Assembly: GCF_001661265.1 (NCBI RefSeq)
Contig: NW_017566996.1
Location: 526,874-590,873, forward strand
Length of the DNA stretch: 64,000 nt
Direction: 5' to 3'
DNA from: Saitoella complicata NRRL Y-17804
Lineage: Eukaryota > Ascomycota > Saitoellomycetes > Saitoellales > Saitoellaceae
The number at the start of each line of letters is the position of its first letter. Position 1 is the first letter of the stretch. This document shows positions 25,736 to 63,881 of this stretch, one piece after another. The notes under the pieces were generated by a model that saw only the letters and a list, made by a program, of their open reading frames with translations, ran no database searches and had not been told where the DNA came from. Made by a program: the position numbers and the translations under genes.

Positions 25736-27409
25736 TCATACAATAATGTCCTCTGCGAACGCGGCGTATCTGTTTCCCACGACAAGCTCCTCCATCGCAC
25801 TCCTGTAACCAGCGTCTGCCGACGCACCTGCGAGTACGGATTCCTTCCATAAGACATTCAGCCGGTTCGCAATCCTCTCCGCTGCTTCCCTGGAGCCAGC
25901 CAAGTTGAACGCTCCCGGACCCAGTTGTAAGGCCGCATAACCTCCTACCACGAAGAGTGGGACCTTTTCATTCCATTGCAAGTCATCCGTGATATGAGGA
26001 AACCCACAAACCACGTCCACAGGATGCGACGCTTGCAAGTTCTGAAGAAACGGAAGCGCCTCGATGGACATAGTGGAACCTGTCGCCGACACAATGTAAT
26101 CGACTTGAAGTGACATGTTGCCGGAGTGGTTCGGTAATGCGCATTTACTCGTGAGCTCAAGCTGCCACCTCTTCTGCTCGGGATCCCAAGCAGCAGCTTT
26201 GATCTGCGTCTCTGTCAACATCTCCAACTTCCCGCGTTTAACATGCTCTTTCAAGATCTTGTGGTACGGCGGAGTGATGCTGCCACCGTTCCGTGCGCCG
26301 CGGATCTGCTTGACGCGAGCCTCTGGGTCGTCTTCTTGCCAGAAGGCCATCTTCTGGACGTTTTGGTACTTCCCTAACCAGTCAAGATCCACATCGAATG
26401 GCTTCACCTTGAGATGAGATCGGCAGAGCAGGAACACCTTCTTCACGCCATGTTTGAGAGCCAGATTCACGATCTGCGCTGATGTAAGACCGCCACCGAT
26501 GATGGCCAATGTGCGTACATTCTGCGGGAATGGCCTTGTTACCAAGGCTGAAGAGTGACAGTATCCCTCATGTTGCGGTAAGGGAGCATTCGACTCATGC
26601 TGCATGTGCTTTGTCGTTTTGCTGCGCTTGGGCGTGGGAGTTAGGACGTCGGGGATTGAGGGGATCGCTCCCGCGCCTGTTGCAAGGACGAGGGCCCTCG
26701 AACCAAAACGGACAGTCTGACCAGTTTGTTCGACAGTCAAGGTGAATGCATCATGAGAGAGATGGTCTTCTGATTTGATGTAGACGTGACCATACTGTAC
26801 CTCGGTGACGGCACCTTGTTGTACGAGATTCTCCAAGCGATACCTCGAGATTACATCGTCGCAAAAATCGCGGAAGAGCCTCGTGGATGGAGTAAAATAG
26901 TCTTGTCTGCTTCGCTCGTTTACAGCAACCCCTAGGGATTGGCGTCTGGTAATAGCAGTTTTCCCTTTACTCTTCTGTCGACATTTGCGGCAGTGTTTGC
27001 TCAACTCCTTTCCAACCACCCCGTTGATCTCCACCAACTCGGCTTGACGCCCTTCAGTCTCTGCATAAGCCACGAGTGAATCCAAATCCCTCGGGTCTGG
27101 ATGAAAGAACATGGGCGACCGGAGATGTTTGATGTCGTACGCTTTGAATTGGCGATCCCATTGAGTCATCCATCCACCCAATCGGTCCAATACCAGCACG
27201 CGAGGCGGTGCACAAGCACGACAAGGCACGCTGGAGTATCTGCGAAGCCAGTGCAGACGTTGATGTTCAACATCAGTATAAAGCGAGGACGGTGTTTCTT
27301 CGTAAAGACGCGCTGCCACGGCGAGGGCGTGGGGGCCAGCACCCACAATGATCAGATCATAAAAGTTCTCGGATTCGACAGCTTCGCAGGTGGTATGTGA
27401 GGTAGACAT
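25736..27409 (-). CDS. FAD-dependent oxidoreductase, SidA/lysine-ornithine monooxygenase-like
   Basis: This is a two-dinucleotide-fold flavoprotein of 557 aa in a single exon. The FAD fold lies at the N-terminus (DLIIVGAGPHALAVAARL). The probable NAD(P)H fold lies in the middle (LAIIGGGLTSAQIVNLAL), and an ATG motif (VLATGAG) and VSATGS mark the linking strands. The layout resembles N-hydroxylating monooxygenases of the SidA/PvdA group and related oxidoreductases. No residues prove substrate, so I do not name one. Two cysteine pairs, CRAC near residue 60 and CRKC in a basic insert near residue 140, are unusual for the group. It borders the motif-rich gene-poor block. No biosynthetic partners (NRPS or transporter) are adjacent. 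Confidence 0.75.
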   Translation of the reverse strand: MSTSHTTCEAVESENFYDLIIVGAGPHALAVAARLYEETPSSLYTDVEHQRLHWLRRYSSVPCRACAPPRVLVLDRLGGWMTQWDRQFKAYDIKHLRSPMFFHPDPRDLDSLVAYAETEGRQAELVEINGVVGKELSKHCRKCRQKSKGKTAITRRQSLGVAVNERSRQDYFTPSTRLFRDFCDDVISRYRLENLVQQGAVTEVQYGHVYIKSEDHLSHDAFTLTVEQTGQTVRFGSRALVLATGAGAIPSIPDVLTPTPKRSKTTKHMQHESNAPLPQHEGYCHSSALVTRPFPQNVRTLAIIGGGLTSAQIVNLALKHGVKKVFLLCRSHLKVKPFDVDLDWLGKYQNVQKMAFWQEDDPEARVKQIRGARNGGSITPPYHKILKEHVKRGKLEMLTETQIKAAAWDPEQKRWQLELTSKCALPNHSGNMSLQVDYIVSATGSTMSIEALPFLQNLQASHPVDVVCGFPHITDDLQWNEKVPLFVVGGYAALQLGPGAFNLAGSREAAERIANRLNVLWKESVLAGASADAGYRSAMEELVVGNRYAAFAEDIIV

Positions 27410-27751
27410 GTTGGAGTATTGGCAATATCGTTACTTTGCAGAAGGACGTCGAATATAGGCAATTCGGTCGGGACCTTGCTGGTACCCAGTGTAGGACTCG
27501 AGGCATCAGACGTCAGGGCGTGAGAACCCTGGTGGTTAATCGATTATCGCTTGAGAAAGGCACCAACCAGCTACTGCTATTGTGAAGCAGGGAAAACATA
27601 CAAGCTCATTATCAGCATGCTTATGATCTTGTTCAAGGATTTGGCGAACTTCTAGGCCTAGGCCTCTGACGTCTAAAAATTGCCTCTTCCGGGAACCGGA
27701 AACTGCGCTAAGGTCGACGTTACAAGATCCGCTTAGACTAGGCTCGAATAG

Positions 27752-28099
27752 GCAGTTTCGTACGAGCACTTTGCAAAAATACTGTCAGCAGCGAGAGGTG
27801 GTGATGGCAGGCGATACTATCAACCTTCTACCCATTACAATCAAACCCACTCCAACCATCTTCACTATCTCCCCACCGCTCCCGCCACCATCGACGCTAT
27901 TATCGCCCAAGCTAAGGAGCAGGCCCTCACTCAACCGAAGAGGAAGTCCCTTGGGAGGACTCATTCGGTGCCACTGAGAACTGCGCATCCGGCCTCCGCT
28001 CCCCCTCACGTGCCACGTGCACCCGTGACAGTGGGTACAGGTTTGGTCGCTCCTCGACTACCAGCCATCGCTCCACAGAGGTTGAGGATGAGCAAATAG
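27752..28099 (+). other. ATG-less open frame, possible exon or gene relic
   Basis: A 115-codon frame with no ATG until four codons before its stop has amino-acid composition like coding sequence. It includes PTAPATIDAIIAQAKEQA and a basic patch PKRKSLGRTHSVPLR, then a Pro/Ala-rich end. It could be the last exon of a gene whose start I could not find, or a decayed remnant. I recognise no family. Confidence 0.25.
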
Positions 28100-31000
28100 C
28101 CGTGCTGCGTCTCTCGATAATTCCTGTCCCGCTCCTGTCAACCTGGAGCGCAAACAGAAGATTGTAAAGTTAACATGACATGTAGACCACGGGGAGATCA
28201 TGTCATCAGTTGTGTAAGTAGATTACACAATGAATACACGACGTGTAATCAGAGTACATGACAAATGGCGTCATGTAATTTGCAGACTGATTCCAGCCCC
28301 ACGGACTCGGCGCTGGTGTATATTCCACGAGCACGTGTTAACCTCGTGTGGACGACATGATGCGCTTGTGCAATGATCATGTAGTTTCTCCCGCCGCATC
28401 ACGCGAGCTGCGCAGTACTTGTGTCCTATAATGAGGAGGGTTGGCAAAAGCTCGTTTGGAAGGAAGCCTCACCTGGTCTTGCTCTTTGCTGCTGATAGAC
28501 AGGAAATTACGCTTAGCCCCACAAATATGGCGGGAAAATGCAGGCTGTTAGGGCATGAGATCATCAGGTTGAAATATCGTAATTCTCCAATGTTCGCATC
28601 AGGTTTTTTGATCATACCACTACAGCAGGAGGTCCCTCTGGGTTAAATCCATGAAACGTACAGTTGTGTGTAACAAGCCTTCAATTTTTCAAGGCATATA
28701 GGTGTTATTTTCGCAATTTTCTCAAGTATTTTGCGGCGACACTTGCTATGGCAGTGCTCCATGATTTCATGAGGAATTGCAATCCATGATCATGTCAAAA
28801 TTGTCATGCACTATTTTGTCTAGGAACTCTGCCAGAATAGTAATGCACGATGAAGTGCGTAACACAGTACTAGTGTAAACCCAGACGAATCCGCGATTTT
28901 GATGTGGATTTTGCACTTCCTAAGAGAGATCGGGTTTACTGCATGAATTTTTCCCTTTGTAGGGTATGTGCTGGACCGCGGCCGTAATAGAGGATGAGCA
29001 TGAGGTAATGATGCATACATGACACATGCATGATATCAATATCACCTTACGCAGTGAGTCTTACTGATTTCCGAACTTGAGAAGGATCCGTGGAACAAGT
29101 CCTCATAATCCCCTGATGATTGATTTTGATTGGGGGTCAACACTCTGACTCTGGGAAGCACATGAAATTCTCCCGAAAATACTGTAAATGTGTAACTAAA
29201 TAGGGGTAGTCAAGCTTTGGTAAGAGATAATACACTTGAATTATATGTGCTTGTTGTCATACCAACCGCGCTATATCAAACCCAAATCATGATTATCTTT
29301 GTTACCTCAAAGTTGGGTGTATGAAAAATACTCCATCAGAGAATAGTCAAGCATAGCACATGTAGGTGTGGTCAAACTTGAGAAATTATAATCGCCATTA
29401 TCGTCTAATCCTGCTTAAAAACTACTACACTTTTACTACCCCTAATCAAGATTGAATATAGTTTATAGCCCGATACAGAGATGTTAAATTTAGAATATAC
29501 AGCAAATATTATTGCACATGTAAGGAAATAGGCCCCATCCAAACACCATGATCCCGTGAGAATTTCATCATGGATATCTTATGAGCCCAATACCATAGCA
29601 CAGGAATGCCATGAGAGTTGAAGTCATAGGGCTTCATGCCTGACGAGGCAAAAATCATGGATTAAGGGTAAACCATAAAGGATCATGCATCACGAGAGAA
29701 TCATGGATTATGCCGAACTTTTTTCGTGTATTATGCCGGATAGGGTTGTGGATGATGCGGGAAAAAAATGGTAGTTTGGGTCCCGACATCCATGATACGA
29801 TCAAGGAGTAACGTGGACTTCATCATATATGCAGAACCAGATCATGGTTGGGGTGGCGTCATCCAAAACAGAGTACTTTTATTCTACAATCAACAAATCA
29901 TGGATGAAACAACTAGCAATCCATGATTCTTACGAATTCAGGGGCGAGTTTGCTGCGACCTTTCTTGGTTACAGTCCTTGTTCTCATCGAGATCTCGGAT
30001 TGTAATCCAAAGCATCATGCTCAGGCTTAATCCATGATGACTTCAAGCATTGTCCCATATTGTGTCGGAGATTGTAATCCAGGATCTTGTTTGGGTGTTG
30101 GCTCGCATAGTAACGCAGTACTAATCCCAGTCGAAACCACGATAATGGTGTGGATACGCACCTGCCCAAGTCAATTCGGATTTGGTTCCCGATTCTCACA
30201 TTCGCAGGGCATGTTCCATGATATCTCAACTCGCATGCGATTTCCTACGTTATGATCCCACGACAGCTGCAGTAATCCCTTGACGTGGGAAACCCAGGAA
30301 ACGTCACCTAACCGGTCAAGACCGAGAATGCCTAGGTACTGTCTCACTCTGCGATGCTTTCTGTCACAAGGAGTCTAGGGGTACTCTGCCAGCCATCTAT
30401 ATGTCTGCCTGTCAATGATCCAAGCTGGCCTCACACCCGCACCTCAACTATTCTAACAAAAGCTTTGTACATTGCCATTGTCCCAACAAGACGTTTCAGT
30501 CCGCTCACGTCGATTTCATGAAGTCAATCAGTTGTATCCGCTGCAGCTCACGGCTACATGAGCATTAACAACATCAAAATCGCCAAACACACATCCGCCA
30601 CTAGTTATTGTGGAGGACTTAAGGACCGAAGGGGGACCTAACAAAGTCAGAAATCATGAAGTAAACCCGAATTCCTTTAGGCAAAAATTTAATAGACGTC
30701 ATCTCGAATTTGTCTGGGATTACAAACGAATTATGCACTTCATTGCGGATTACTATCCTGGCGGAAATCCTAGACAAAATTGTGGATTACAATTCTTGAC
30801 ATCATCACGGACACAGCCCGGAGAAATCACGGATTATGCCGGGCGCCGTCGCGGACTGAGCTTGGATGAAACCAAATTCGAGGATTGAACAGGATAAAGT
30901 ATAGATTGAGCCCGAAAATATCGTGCAGAGAACTGACTTCTTATTGTGGACTGATATCGATCATGAATTATGCGGAATAAAATCTTGGATTAAGCCAAAC

Positions 31001-32700
31001 TAAGGTGTGATTTAGCAATCGAGGTTTGGGCCCCGAAATCCATGGATTTTCCACGATCGAACATCATGTATTAAACGAGATTTTCTAATCCATGATTCTC
31101 TGGAACGTGTACAATCCACGATAATCCATGCATCGTACCTCTGTGATTTCGTATGGGATCCCTGCCCAGGTAGTAGTAACCCATGACAACGCACGTAATC
31201 CATGTGGATGTCTAAGACCAAACGCGTTCACAGTTTTCTTGTGGGTTTCATGTGCGCCTAACAAAGTTCTGATTCTGTCGGACAAATCGTGCGCGTTTCT
31301 ATGATGAAGTTGGTTAATCCACGGCAAAGAGAGCATGGACTGAACCTGACCTGGTCATTCATGATCCTCACATACGTAGGACACTTTCCCAAACTTGAGA
31401 TTTCTGGGATTCTACCGAAAATTATCTGGGGTTTGCTTGAAAAATTTGCATCCTCTAGTATTTCGACACATGTTTTTGAAGATTATGGCCGACAGCGTCT
31501 TGGCCTGGTCAACCTTCTCTCGAACTTTGCCTGAATTCTTCTGAAACCATGAATGAACCAATGGAAACCTTGCCACCTCACCTGAACATCTTCATCACAC
31601 TCCAGACGTTCGGATTCAAAGCTTCTGTATGGCATTATTCATCATGGGAAAAAGCGTACCAGAAGATTCCAATATCAACCTGCAGCTATCAGACCTTATA
31701 CTCAGCCGATATCTGGCCAACGGGTTAGGGTTTGTCAATTACCATGTCCTTCAACGATGAGGGTCAGAATTTAAAGGCATGCTCGCCTGCGCCGCGCCCA
31801 TGCCCATTCCATGCCTATCTATATTATCTGATATTGCCTGTTTATATAGGTGTACAGCCCACTGCGGGCAGATCGAGAGTTATGAACCATATTCCCACGG
31901 TTAGGTGGTCGGAAGATTCGGTGTTTATCAGTATAACTACACTGGTTCTGTAGCTTCGGGCGATAGCAATAGCAATCTGATGGTAGATTGTGCAAGAACA
32001 TGACATGGAAACCCCAAAACAACAGAGCTTTATACCTTTTTAGGTTTTACTGCACGGCGCTCTGAACGATGTGGAGGATGTCATGAACACCAAAACTGCG
32101 GCAAGCTCCATGTACAGAGAACGCTGCAGCTATATATATACGACGGTATCTTGGAATCATGGGTGACCCCTGTGAAATGTAGACATCTCAATGTGGGTCA
32201 GCTGTACACGCACAGACGACCCCGGGAATGAACACGAACGTGCATCCTTCGCTCCATCTCGGCGAATATTCGGTAATCAGATGCAACGTCCTTCCAGGAT
32301 CTGAACCTTGATGCCATGGAGCGCGTTCGGAAATCGAACTCCGCGCCCATGGCCATGCATGCTCGGCGATGAGCTGGTGAGATACCTGCTCCGGATCAGG
32401 CCCGGCTAAAGAACTCGGAGCCTCCAATCCATAATCATCTCGCTTAAACGGATTTTAACCTTTCCGAACGTCTATTCGCTTCGTCGAGCCATTCCATCAC
32501 TGGCGTTGCATTTTCGGTACTTTCTCGGTCCAAGCTGCGGTTTCGGTCCCAGTACGTAACCGCTAGCCTCCACCGTCACCCCGTATGCCCGCACCTCGTT
32601 TGGCTGCTCTTGATTCAGACTGTTGGACTTATCGTTTCTGTATTATTCAGGATGAGGATTCTCGCTGAGGGCATGGTTGGTTCTCGTTGATCATGGATTA
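28100..32700. repeat. Dispersed 16-bp motif array (AATCATGGATTATGCC and reverse complement)
   Basis: The core ATCATGGATT or its complement AATCCATGAT occurs exactly at 28781, 29654, 29700, 29918, 30029, 31087 and 32690. One-mismatch copies are at 29567, 29897, 30826 and 31113. Longer forms extend to TATGCC or TAAGCC: 29699-29714, 30825-30840, 30981-30996, and inverted at 30024-30039. Copies at 30959 and 30981 are 22 bp apart. AATCCATGGATT at 31037-31048 is a perfect 12-bp palindrome. By chance a 10-mer should occur less than 0.02 times in this span. Copies occur in both orientations and at irregular spacing, so it is not a tandem satellite. Confidence 0.7.
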
Positions 32701-33024
32701 TCATTCCAGATCAACCTTTCACCGCTGTCGCACGATGCTCTTCGCACATCTCCTCTCCGCTCATCTCGGTGATCCGGAGAAGACTGCGTTAGATTGCTGT
32801 GGAGGATGCTGGCGTGAACCAGCGACGCCTCCGCCAACATCATCCCACGCTCTACTGCGACGGATCTCATGAACCGGAATTGCTACCGGCGGGGTTGGAT
32901 GAATACCCCATGGTACGAGCTGAGCCCCACAAGCGGGGGACTAGGACGTCATTCGTAAGGATCGTCAGGACGCATAGGCCTTTTCTCCGGTCCTCAGTCC
33001 TTGAACAGTCTTCGGGGACTGGGG

Positions 33025-33030
33025 TATAAG
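33025..33030 (+). promoter_or_regulatory. TATA-like element of the GH32 gene
   Basis: TATAAG lies 58 bp before the start codon, in a spacing usual for fungal core promoters. No other control element was identified with confidence. Confidence 0.35.
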
Positions 33031-33087
33031 TATGTAGTCAGACCCCCGCCTGTCAAGGGCTTTCTCCATCTGTGATTCCACTCTATT

Positions 33088-63078: not shown

Positions 63079-63881
63079 CAGAAGGAGGGGTCAGCATATC
63101 AATACAGTGTTGAGGGTGACGGTAGTATCTACATGAGTTCGTAGGCATTGGCAGAAGATGGCGACGATTCCGCATACGTCACATGTTGGAGTGCACAAAC
63201 GCATTGCGAGCAATTGAGGATGCGAACGCCGTACGAGCGAAACACAGTACGTCTTACCAAGATGCACCCCCATTTTGACGTTCTTTCGGTGCCCAATCCG
63301 GTAATTTAGCCCTGCCCGCGCGTGCGGCGAACGTGGAAACCGACCTGAAAACGCCCATTAAAAAAGGTGAAATCAGTAAAATTGACCCGGCAAATCTGTT
63401 CTTTTATATTTCAGGTTTATTCCTTTCATCTTTGAGCCCCCTCACACCTCAATTACGTGAGATATCCCCTACTCTAAGTCGACGTAGGGGTAGCACGAGC
63501 GCTCGCTGCCAGCCGGGCCTCTCCACCCTCCCCGGCCCACACCCCACCCAGACTGTTCTTGAAACCCGGGGAAGAGAATGTCGAGATTTGTTCATTACCA
63601 TTCACGTACACACCTGCAATATCTCCCATGTTTTTTACCCTCTCGTCCTCAATCTTTTCCCTCCCGTCTTCACCCTTTTCCCAGAGTTGTGTACCTGAAT
63701 GTGCCGCCGTCGGCGCTTTCATTCATTACCTTTCCATTTCCGGCGTTTGTAAACAAAGAGCATGTCACCCGACAACGTCGCAACAACCCATTTCATCGCG
63801 TCTCCCTTCTTGTGCTACTATTCATGTACACACCTGCAATATCTCCCATGTTTTTTACCCTCCTGTCTTCAACCTTTTCCC
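63079..63881. other. Subtelomeric spacer
   Basis: The 803-bp stretch between the last gene and the telomere repeats has only short, unsupported frames (for example 63333-63698). Pyrimidine-rich tracts (CCCTCCCGTCTTCACCC) are frequent on the + strand. A direct repeat is described separately. There is no trace of a telomeric helicase gene, which many ascomycete subtelomeres carry. Confidence 0.55.
63601..63881 (+). repeat. Direct repeat of a 61-bp element, second copy abutting the telomere
   Basis: Positions 63601-63661 and 63821-63881 are near-identical and exactly 220 bp apart. Both contain ACACACCTGCAATATC followed by TCCCATGTTTTTTACCC, with about five substitutions over 61 bp. The second copy ends directly against the first telomere repeat. 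It may be a subtelomeric repeat unit or a telomere-healing scar. Confidence 0.7.

What the first reader, a model, noticed from the sequence alone, without database searches (positions are those of the whole stretch)
28100..32700. Gene-poor, AT-rich block with a dispersed 16-bp motif in both orientations
In a genome with gaps of 50-500 bp, this 4-5 kb block has no recognised gene and carries seven exact copies of ATCATGGATT (three + and four -) plus at least four one-mismatch copies, many extended to AATCATGGATTATGCC or TAAGCC. The expected number of a given 10-mer is below 0.02. I noticed no exact copy elsewhere in the window. Spacing is irregular and orientation mixed, so it is not a simple satellite. 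Possibilities include a regional centromere or heterochromatin nucleation site, a replication-origin cluster, a binding array for a dedicated protein, or a decayed mobile element. It lies about 31-36 kb from the telomere.
Basis: partly seen in the sequence, partly recalled or inferred. Interest (0 to 1): 0.8.

Follow-up and report, generated by a model that had tools for sequence, protein, structure and literature searches.

The report
Candidate centromere of a yeast chromosome
This gene-free stretch looks like the centromere of a small yeast chromosome: it is packed with a short, nearly mirror-symmetric DNA word, and similar patches occur on nearly every large piece of the genome, mostly one on each, in a yeast group where few centromeres have been described.

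Summary
Seven exact ATCATGGATT (3+, 4-) and 11 one-mismatch copies lie in 28.6-32.7 kb; no exact copy lies elsewhere in the window. The block is the window's longest ORF-free stretch (5.6 kb).

The genome matches Saitoella complicata, Taphrinomycotina (exact 26-base primer hit). It holds 198 exact copies; 157 lie in 37 patches. Patches occur on 32 of 34 contigs: one on each of C6-C32, two on each of C1-C5. In 200,000 random placements at most 29 contigs were hit. The window's contig C5 is two chromosomes joined at an N-gap followed by a telomere; split there, each has one patch.

Patches are AT-richer, share repeats found mostly there, and carry dense arrays (641 sites in 33 read pieces) of a degenerate dyad, AATCATGGATTACGCC, in both orientations.

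Best reading (0.85): these are the centromeres, short regional ones built on a motif array, resembling those of Malassezia. Against it: C1-C4 keep two patches each, and contigs lacking a telomere might pair up. CENP-A binding is untested. The motif binder is unknown; none of seven readable homeodomains has lysine 50.

The parts
27431..33075 (.). ORF-free intergenic block that holds the candidate centromere
   Evidence: longest stretch with no stop-to-stop frame >=120 codons (5645 bp; next 633 bp)
28641..31188 (.). dense array of the degenerate dyad motif AATCATGGATTACGCC, both orientations (candidate centromere core)
   Evidence: 23 of the 26 block sites (score >=9) lie here; matrix trained without this locus
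28781..28790 (-). exact ATCATGGATT
29654..29663 (+). exact ATCATGGATT
29700..29709 (+). exact ATCATGGATT, extended AATCATGGATTATGCC
29918..29927 (-). exact ATCATGGATT
30029..30038 (-). exact ATCATGGATT
31087..31096 (-). exact ATCATGGATT
32690..32699 (+). exact ATCATGGATT, outlier at the edge of the block
28597..28966 (.). repeat 'D', shared at about 67-86% with patches of many other contigs
28783..28960 (+). left arm of an imperfect inverted repeat (73%) around a 1.7-kb centre
   Evidence: sub-arms also
30641..30811 (-). right arm of the same inverted repeat; a copy of part of repeat D
29201..29444 (.). repeat shared with the patches on C4 (403 kb), C20 and C21 (76-83%)
31017..31108 (.). short motif-bearing repeat shared with many patches
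25736..27409 (-). flanking gene: lysine/ornithine N-monooxygenase-like protein
   Evidence: PF13434
33088..35097 (+). flanking gene: GH32 (invertase-like) protein
   Evidence: PF00251, PF08244
63885..64000 (+). TTAGGG telomere, right end of this chromosome

Best explanation
The block is the centromere of a small chromosome (about 176 kb, C5:414903-590873) of Saitoella complicata. It is a short regional centromere with a motif-dense core of about 2.5 kb. A sequence-specific protein, not yet known, binds the many near-palindromic sites AATC-ATG-GATT and helps to place or keep CENP-A nucleosomes there, on which the kinetochore forms. Shown here: the array, its AT-richness, the lack of long open frames, the close to one-per-contig distribution, and repeats found mostly or only in the patches. 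Inferred: CENP-A binding, the DNA-binding protein, and exchange of repeats between centromeres as the reason patches share DNA. The confidence below is for the patches being centromeres; the protein-binding step alone I put at about 0.5.
For: All 198 exact 10-mers were placed; 157 fall in 37 patches on 32 of 34 contigs. C6-C32 (27 contigs, 174-571 kb) have exactly one each; 37 random loci hit a mean of 21 contigs and at most 29 (200,000 simulations). 22 of 34 contigs have telomeres at both ends: 18 carry one patch, 4 carry two, none carries zero. Contig C5, with two, is a join: 66 N followed directly by a left telomere at 414903, between its two patches. Patch cores (33 pieces) have 43.7% GC against 51.9%, and GGATTA occurs 378 times against 22.8 expected from the window background; the dyad AATC-N3-GATT occurs 117 times in the cores, at most 20 times at any other spacing from 0 to 12, and 0 times in 58 kb of background. 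Repeat B has 17 matches, the query's own place included, all in patches; 49 of 53 matches of the window block outside its own place are within 5 kb of a patch, 3.2% of the genome. In alignments between patches GGATTA columns are 85.3% identical against 74.3% elsewhere, and whole hexamers are kept 0.41 against 0.22 for permuted words. A mobile-looking element prefers patches (47 of 65 matches), as Ty5-like elements do at some yeast centromeres (PMC12711049, passages).
Against: C1, C2, C3 and C4 carry two patches each. C1, C2 and C4 have telomeres at both ends; C1-C4 show no internal telomere array of 60 bp and no internal copy of one subtelomeric repeat. Twelve contigs have a telomere at one end only (right end of C34 not read), and 10 of these carry a patch: if they are halves that belong together, more chromosomes have two patches. 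The 57 telomeres seen (56 contig ends, one internal) ask for at least 29 chromosomes, fewer than 37. No ChIP, Hi-C or expression data could be used. The word-conservation test counts related alignments repeatedly; 2 of 83 control words scored higher, and in a first version that included element A at least 10 of 86 did. Two pairs of exact copies (C3:344.6 kb, C21:59.5 kb) were left out of the 37, and three single copies (C10, C31, C32) added, after the fact.
Confidence: 0.85

Rival explanations
1. Graveyard of an old satellite-like or mobile repeat that settles at or near the centromeres. The motif is only a leftover of the repeat unit and has no job; the CENP-A domain is set epigenetically, in the patch or beside it. 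(Overlaps with the best reading as to place, not as to mechanism.)
For: Patches share long repeats. Element A, with sharp ends, gathers at patches but also occurs elsewhere. Motif spacings of 22, 25 and 12 bp recur, as if parts of the array arose by copying. At least 10 of 86 permuted words were kept better than GGATTA when element A was included.
Against: In the reference patch on C29 none of the five exact motif sites lies in element A. Without A, motif columns are kept better than their surroundings in patch-to-patch alignments. Patches such as the window's share little long sequence with the rest, yet carry the array.
Confidence: 0.25
2. A once-per-chromosome site of another kind: a meiotic pairing centre, a nuclear-envelope anchor or a heterochromatin nucleation site, with the centromere elsewhere.
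For: Distribution and short-motif arrays would look alike; worm pairing centres are also arrays of short protein-binding motifs (recalled).
Against: AT-richer, gene-poor, repeat-sharing loci of a few kb match known yeast centromeres. No other once-per-chromosome feature was seen, but none was sought genome-wide.
Confidence: 0.08
3. Cluster of replication origins or a transcription-factor array for neighbouring genes.
For: AT-richer intergenic DNA with many binding-site-like words.
Against: 37 sites in 14.1 Mb, one on each of 27 contigs that span a 3.3-fold range in length, are too few and too regular for origins (judged from general knowledge). In the window the flanks are ordinary genes.
Confidence: 0.03

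Closest known systems
Short regional centromeres of Malassezia (12-bp AT-rich motif)
   Same: 3-5 kb kinetochore-bound regions in M. sympodialis, one per chromosome, GC trough, enriched short motif without orientation bias (PMC7025860, passages read).
   Different: Different phylum; AT-rich 12-bp motif with 7-13 matches per 500 bp; no direct or inverted repeats reported there, whereas Saitoella patches share long repeats. M. sympodialis centromeres were mapped experimentally; these were not.
Motif centromeres of budding yeasts (H. uvarum 21 bp; W. anomalus 21 bp; S. quercuum 17 bp)
   Same: A short motif marks the centromeres, in H. uvarum with a short inverted repeat (AACGCA twice, 5 nt apart); in W. 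anomalus Ty5-like elements lie next to the array (PMC12711049, passages read).
   Different: One or few copies, or in W. anomalus 5-9 tandem copies almost all on one strand; here 9-32 scattered degenerate sites per 2.5 kb in both orientations.
Schizosaccharomyces pombe regional centromeres
   Same: Same subphylum; shared centromeric repeats and, in the window, an imperfect inverted repeat around a centre.
   Different: S. pombe centromeres are tens of kb with long inverted repeats (recalled); inverted pairs here are short (60-270 bp), diverged, and found in 15 of 33 patch pieces.
Pneumocystis centromeres
   Same: Same subphylum, short (<10 kb), one per chromosome.
   Different: Span active genes, with no conserved motif or repeats (PMC10327204, passages including the abstract).

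Membership tests
centromere | binds CENP-A / kinetochore proteins | not testable with these tools
   no ChIP data held
centromere | one per chromosome | tested here: inconclusive
   18 of 22 two-telomere contigs have one patch, 4 have two, 0 have none; C5 is a join of two; C1, C2, C4 unresolved; 10 of 12 one-telomere contigs carry a patch and could pair up
short regional centromere (fungal) | few-kb, AT-richer, gene-poor locus | tested here: met
   window 27431-33075 without frames of 120 codons; cores 43.7% vs 51.9% GC
motif-bearing short regional centromere (Malassezia type) | a short motif whose density peak along the chromosome is the centromere locus | tested here: met
   window: 26 sites in the block vs 9 in the rest, held-out matrix; genome: 157 of 198 exact copies in 37 patches. 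That the loci are centromeres is the inference
motif-bearing short regional centromere (Malassezia type) | the Malassezia 12-bp motif itself | not tested
   the motif letters were not compared
S. pombe-type centromere | long inverted repeats flanking a central core on each chromosome | tested here: not met
   inverted pairs of 60-270 bp in 15 of 33 patch pieces, none that long in the other 18 (about half of the pieces are only 3-5 kb, so longer flanks were not seen)
transposable element | coding remnants, or copies spread through the genome | tested here: not met
   8 of 17 block ORFs tested, no Pfam match; 49 of 53 block matches at patches. Element A may be mobile but has no match in the window block

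The most novel reading that the evidence does not exclude
Saitoella complicata has genetically encoded regional centromeres: a dedicated DNA-binding protein reads an array of near-palindromic AATCATGGATTA sites and directs CENP-A there on some 29-37 tiny chromosomes, seven of them nearly telocentric (patch within 1.4-8 kb of a telomere), with centromere-only repeats exchanged among chromosomes. It would be a sequence-guided centromere in a subphylum whose described centromeres lack such a motif (Pneumocystis) or are regarded as largely epigenetic (S. pombe, recalled).
Probability: 0.45. Interest if true: 0.85.

Novelty: new variant of a known kind. Interest (0 to 1): 0.75.

Why it matters
In the papers I met (listings, passages) only Schizosaccharomyces and Pneumocystis centromeres are described in Taphrinomycotina, and the Pneumocystis authors say that more species of the subphylum must be characterised to infer the ancestral state. 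Here a culturable soil yeast offers about 37 candidate centromeres with one shared motif, so the question whether DNA sequence or epigenetic memory sets a regional centromere becomes directly testable. It also points to a karyotype of some 29-37 small chromosomes.

Tried and rejected
Homeodomain binder: GGATTA/TAATCC is the site type of lysine-50 homeodomains (recalled), so the 8 homeodomain matches that the genome search returned were read. Position 50 (counted by the WFxN signature, recalled) is Q in four, I in one, T in one and E in one; the eighth is cut, perhaps by an intron. None of the seven readable ones has lysine. This does not exclude other binders.

GC-skew switch at the patches: left exceeded right in 12 of 16 loci, with a true sign change in 5 of 16; too weak to use.

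Chromosome fusion or joins on C1-C4: searched by internal telomere arrays (the listing of the first 100 places covers C1-C4 and part of C5) and by one subtelomeric stretch (7 other places, all at contig ends). Not demonstrated.

Consistent inverted-repeat architecture: rejected, short and in 15 of 33 patch pieces. Simple satellite: no tandem array in the window block. The first conservation test included element A and gave 0.408 against 0.294, with at least 10 of 86 control words higher; it was repeated without A.

Patches without letters: C3:110 kb, C10, C14, C15 and C31 (5 of 37) were placed by match coordinates only; many others were read over 3-5 kb only. The patch on C32 rests on one exact copy plus 13 matrix sites per 2.5 kb, that on C31 on one exact copy plus a 79% copy of repeat B, that on C10 on one exact copy plus an 85% copy of B.

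Full report
What was reported and what is there. This holds: seven exact ATCATGGATT, 3 plus and 4 minus, all in the block, and 11 of the window's 17 one-mismatch copies there too; 24 matches in all against a shuffle mean of 4.8. GC falls to 40-47%. The stretch 27431-33075 has no open frame of 120 codons, while the next such gap in the window is 633 bp. No tandem array, no Rfam match, no tRNA, no Pfam match in the 8 of 17 block ORFs tested. The neighbours are an ornithine/lysine monooxygenase-like gene and a GH32 gene.

Organism. The genome is 14,122,262 bp in 34 contigs. A 26-base primer printed for Saitoella complicata (PMC6605012, first of two parts read) matches once, exactly, with no hit of the reversed control; the published draft is 14.1 Mb (PMC4447899, whole text). 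I take it as S. complicata.

Assembly. Sixty-base contig ends and longer end pieces show TTAGGG telomeres at both ends of 22 contigs and at one end of 12 (right end of C34 not read). C17 begins in what I recognise from recall as the 18S-ITS border of rDNA. The genome is nearly complete, with small chromosomes; 57 telomeres seen (one of them internal) ask for at least 29.

Genome-wide motif. All 198 exact copies were placed by three complementary searches, 69+56+73; the reversed word occurs 6 times. Joining copies within 5 kb gives 36 groups of two or more. I dropped two pairs without any other mark (C3:344.6 kb, C21:59.5 kb) and added three single copies that lie with other patch features (C10 and C31 by repeat B; C32 by matrix sites). 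That makes 37 patches with 157 copies. The other 41 copies compare with 27 expected for any 10-mer under equal base use and 6 for the reversed word. C6-C32 have exactly one patch each, C1-C5 two each, C33 (127 kb) and C34 (21 kb) none. Among 22 two-telomere contigs, 18 have one, 4 have two, none has zero. In 200,000 random placements of 37 loci the most contigs ever hit was 29, against 32 seen.

The window's own contig explains one exception. C5 has an internal telomere at 414903. Its letters show ordinary sequence, 66 N, then the telomere in left-end orientation. C5 is therefore two chromosomes; each has one patch, and the window's chromosome is about 176 kb with its patch about 33 kb from the right telomere. 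For C1-C4 I found no such trace. They remain two-patch contigs. The 12 one-telomere contigs are a further doubt: 10 of them carry a patch, so if they are halves that belong together, more chromosomes have two.

Anatomy. In 33 core pieces (86 kb) GC is 43.7% against 51.9% in 58 kb of window background, and GGATTA is 16 times over-represented. The half-sites AATC and GATT stand three bases apart 117 times and at most 20 times at any other distance up to 12. The consensus is AATCATGGATTACGCC. A matrix trained without the window's patch finds 26 sites in the block and 9 in the other 59 kb. The 33 pieces of 32 patches whose letters I hold have 9-32 sites per 2.5 kb, though all but the window's also trained the matrix; three isolated copies (C1:237 kb, C1:265 kb, C18:340 kb) have one each. 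With a cut-off of 10 there are 641 sites in 33 pieces, 331 plus and 310 minus, median gap 49 bp, with preferred spacings of 22, 25 and 12 bp.

Shared DNA. Patches share repeats. Repeat B (650 bp) has 17 genome matches, its own place included, all in patches. The window block has 53 matches outside its own place, 49 within 5 kb of a patch; patches with 5 kb either side are 3.2% of the genome. Element A (1.2 kb, sharp ends) has 65 matches (40 of 43 candidates scored, so a lower bound), 47 at patches, and looks mobile. In 838 patch-to-patch alignments without A, counted in both directions, GGATTA is kept better than its surroundings (85.3% against 74.3% of columns; whole word 0.41 against 0.22 for permutations; 2 of 83 words higher). 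With A included the contrast was weaker (0.41 against 0.29, at least 10 of 86 words higher). The alignments are not independent.

Reading. A gene-poor, AT-richer, repeat-sharing patch, close to one per chromosome, with a dense motif array, is what a short regional centromere looks like. The nearest described case is Malassezia, where M. sympodialis centromeres were mapped experimentally (PMC7025860, passages). In budding yeasts short motifs with few or tandem copies mark centromeres, and Ty5-like elements may lie beside them (PMC12711049, passages). Within Taphrinomycotina, Pneumocystis centromeres are genic without motif (PMC10327204, passages including the abstract). I saw no paper on Saitoella centromeres in the listings, which show only part of the papers found (for example 25 of 45). 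How it works beyond this is inferred: a protein binds the dyads and favours CENP-A there. The one candidate class tested, K50 homeodomains, was not found among seven readable ones.

Limits. No protein-binding data; no letters for 5 of 37 patches (C3:110 kb, C10, C14, C15, C31); the two-patch contigs C1-C4 are unresolved; Taphrina genomes are reported to undergo end-to-end fusions (PMC7036362, passages), so real two-patch chromosomes are possible.

Noticed in passing
G000:C5:414660-415060 (L119): Scaffold join: non-telomeric sequence, 66 N, then a left telomere; contig C5 is two chromosomes.
   Followed up: yes
L019 (C4:401884-404895), local 2025-2738: A 20-N gap flanked by a 347-bp perfect direct repeat inside the second C4 patch, probably an assembly duplicate.
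   Followed up: no
L053:6198-7422 and 64 other matches: 1.2-kb element A with sharp ends, matches 70-97% alike, 47 of 65 at patches; fragments of about 190 bp occur alone. Possibly a mobile element that targets centromeres; its coding capacity was not tested.
   Followed up: partly
C1:279211-281252: Copies of element A and of window-block repeats with no motif cluster; perhaps a dead centromere on the largest contig.
   Followed up: no
C10, C12, C19, C22, C24, C26, C30: Patches within about 1.4-8 kb of a telomere: nearly telocentric chromosomes if these are centromeres.
   Followed up: partly
window 63253-63542: About 290-bp subtelomeric repeat shared, in whole or part, with seven other contig ends.
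   Followed up: no
C26 start and C29 end (L084, L114): The two telomere-less ends share the same sequence in the same relation to the end, as if both stop in one repeat (compared by eye).
   Followed up: no
C17 left end (L075): Contig begins at what looks like the 18S/ITS1 border of rDNA (recognised from recall); the rDNA array may be terminal or join two contigs.
   Followed up: no
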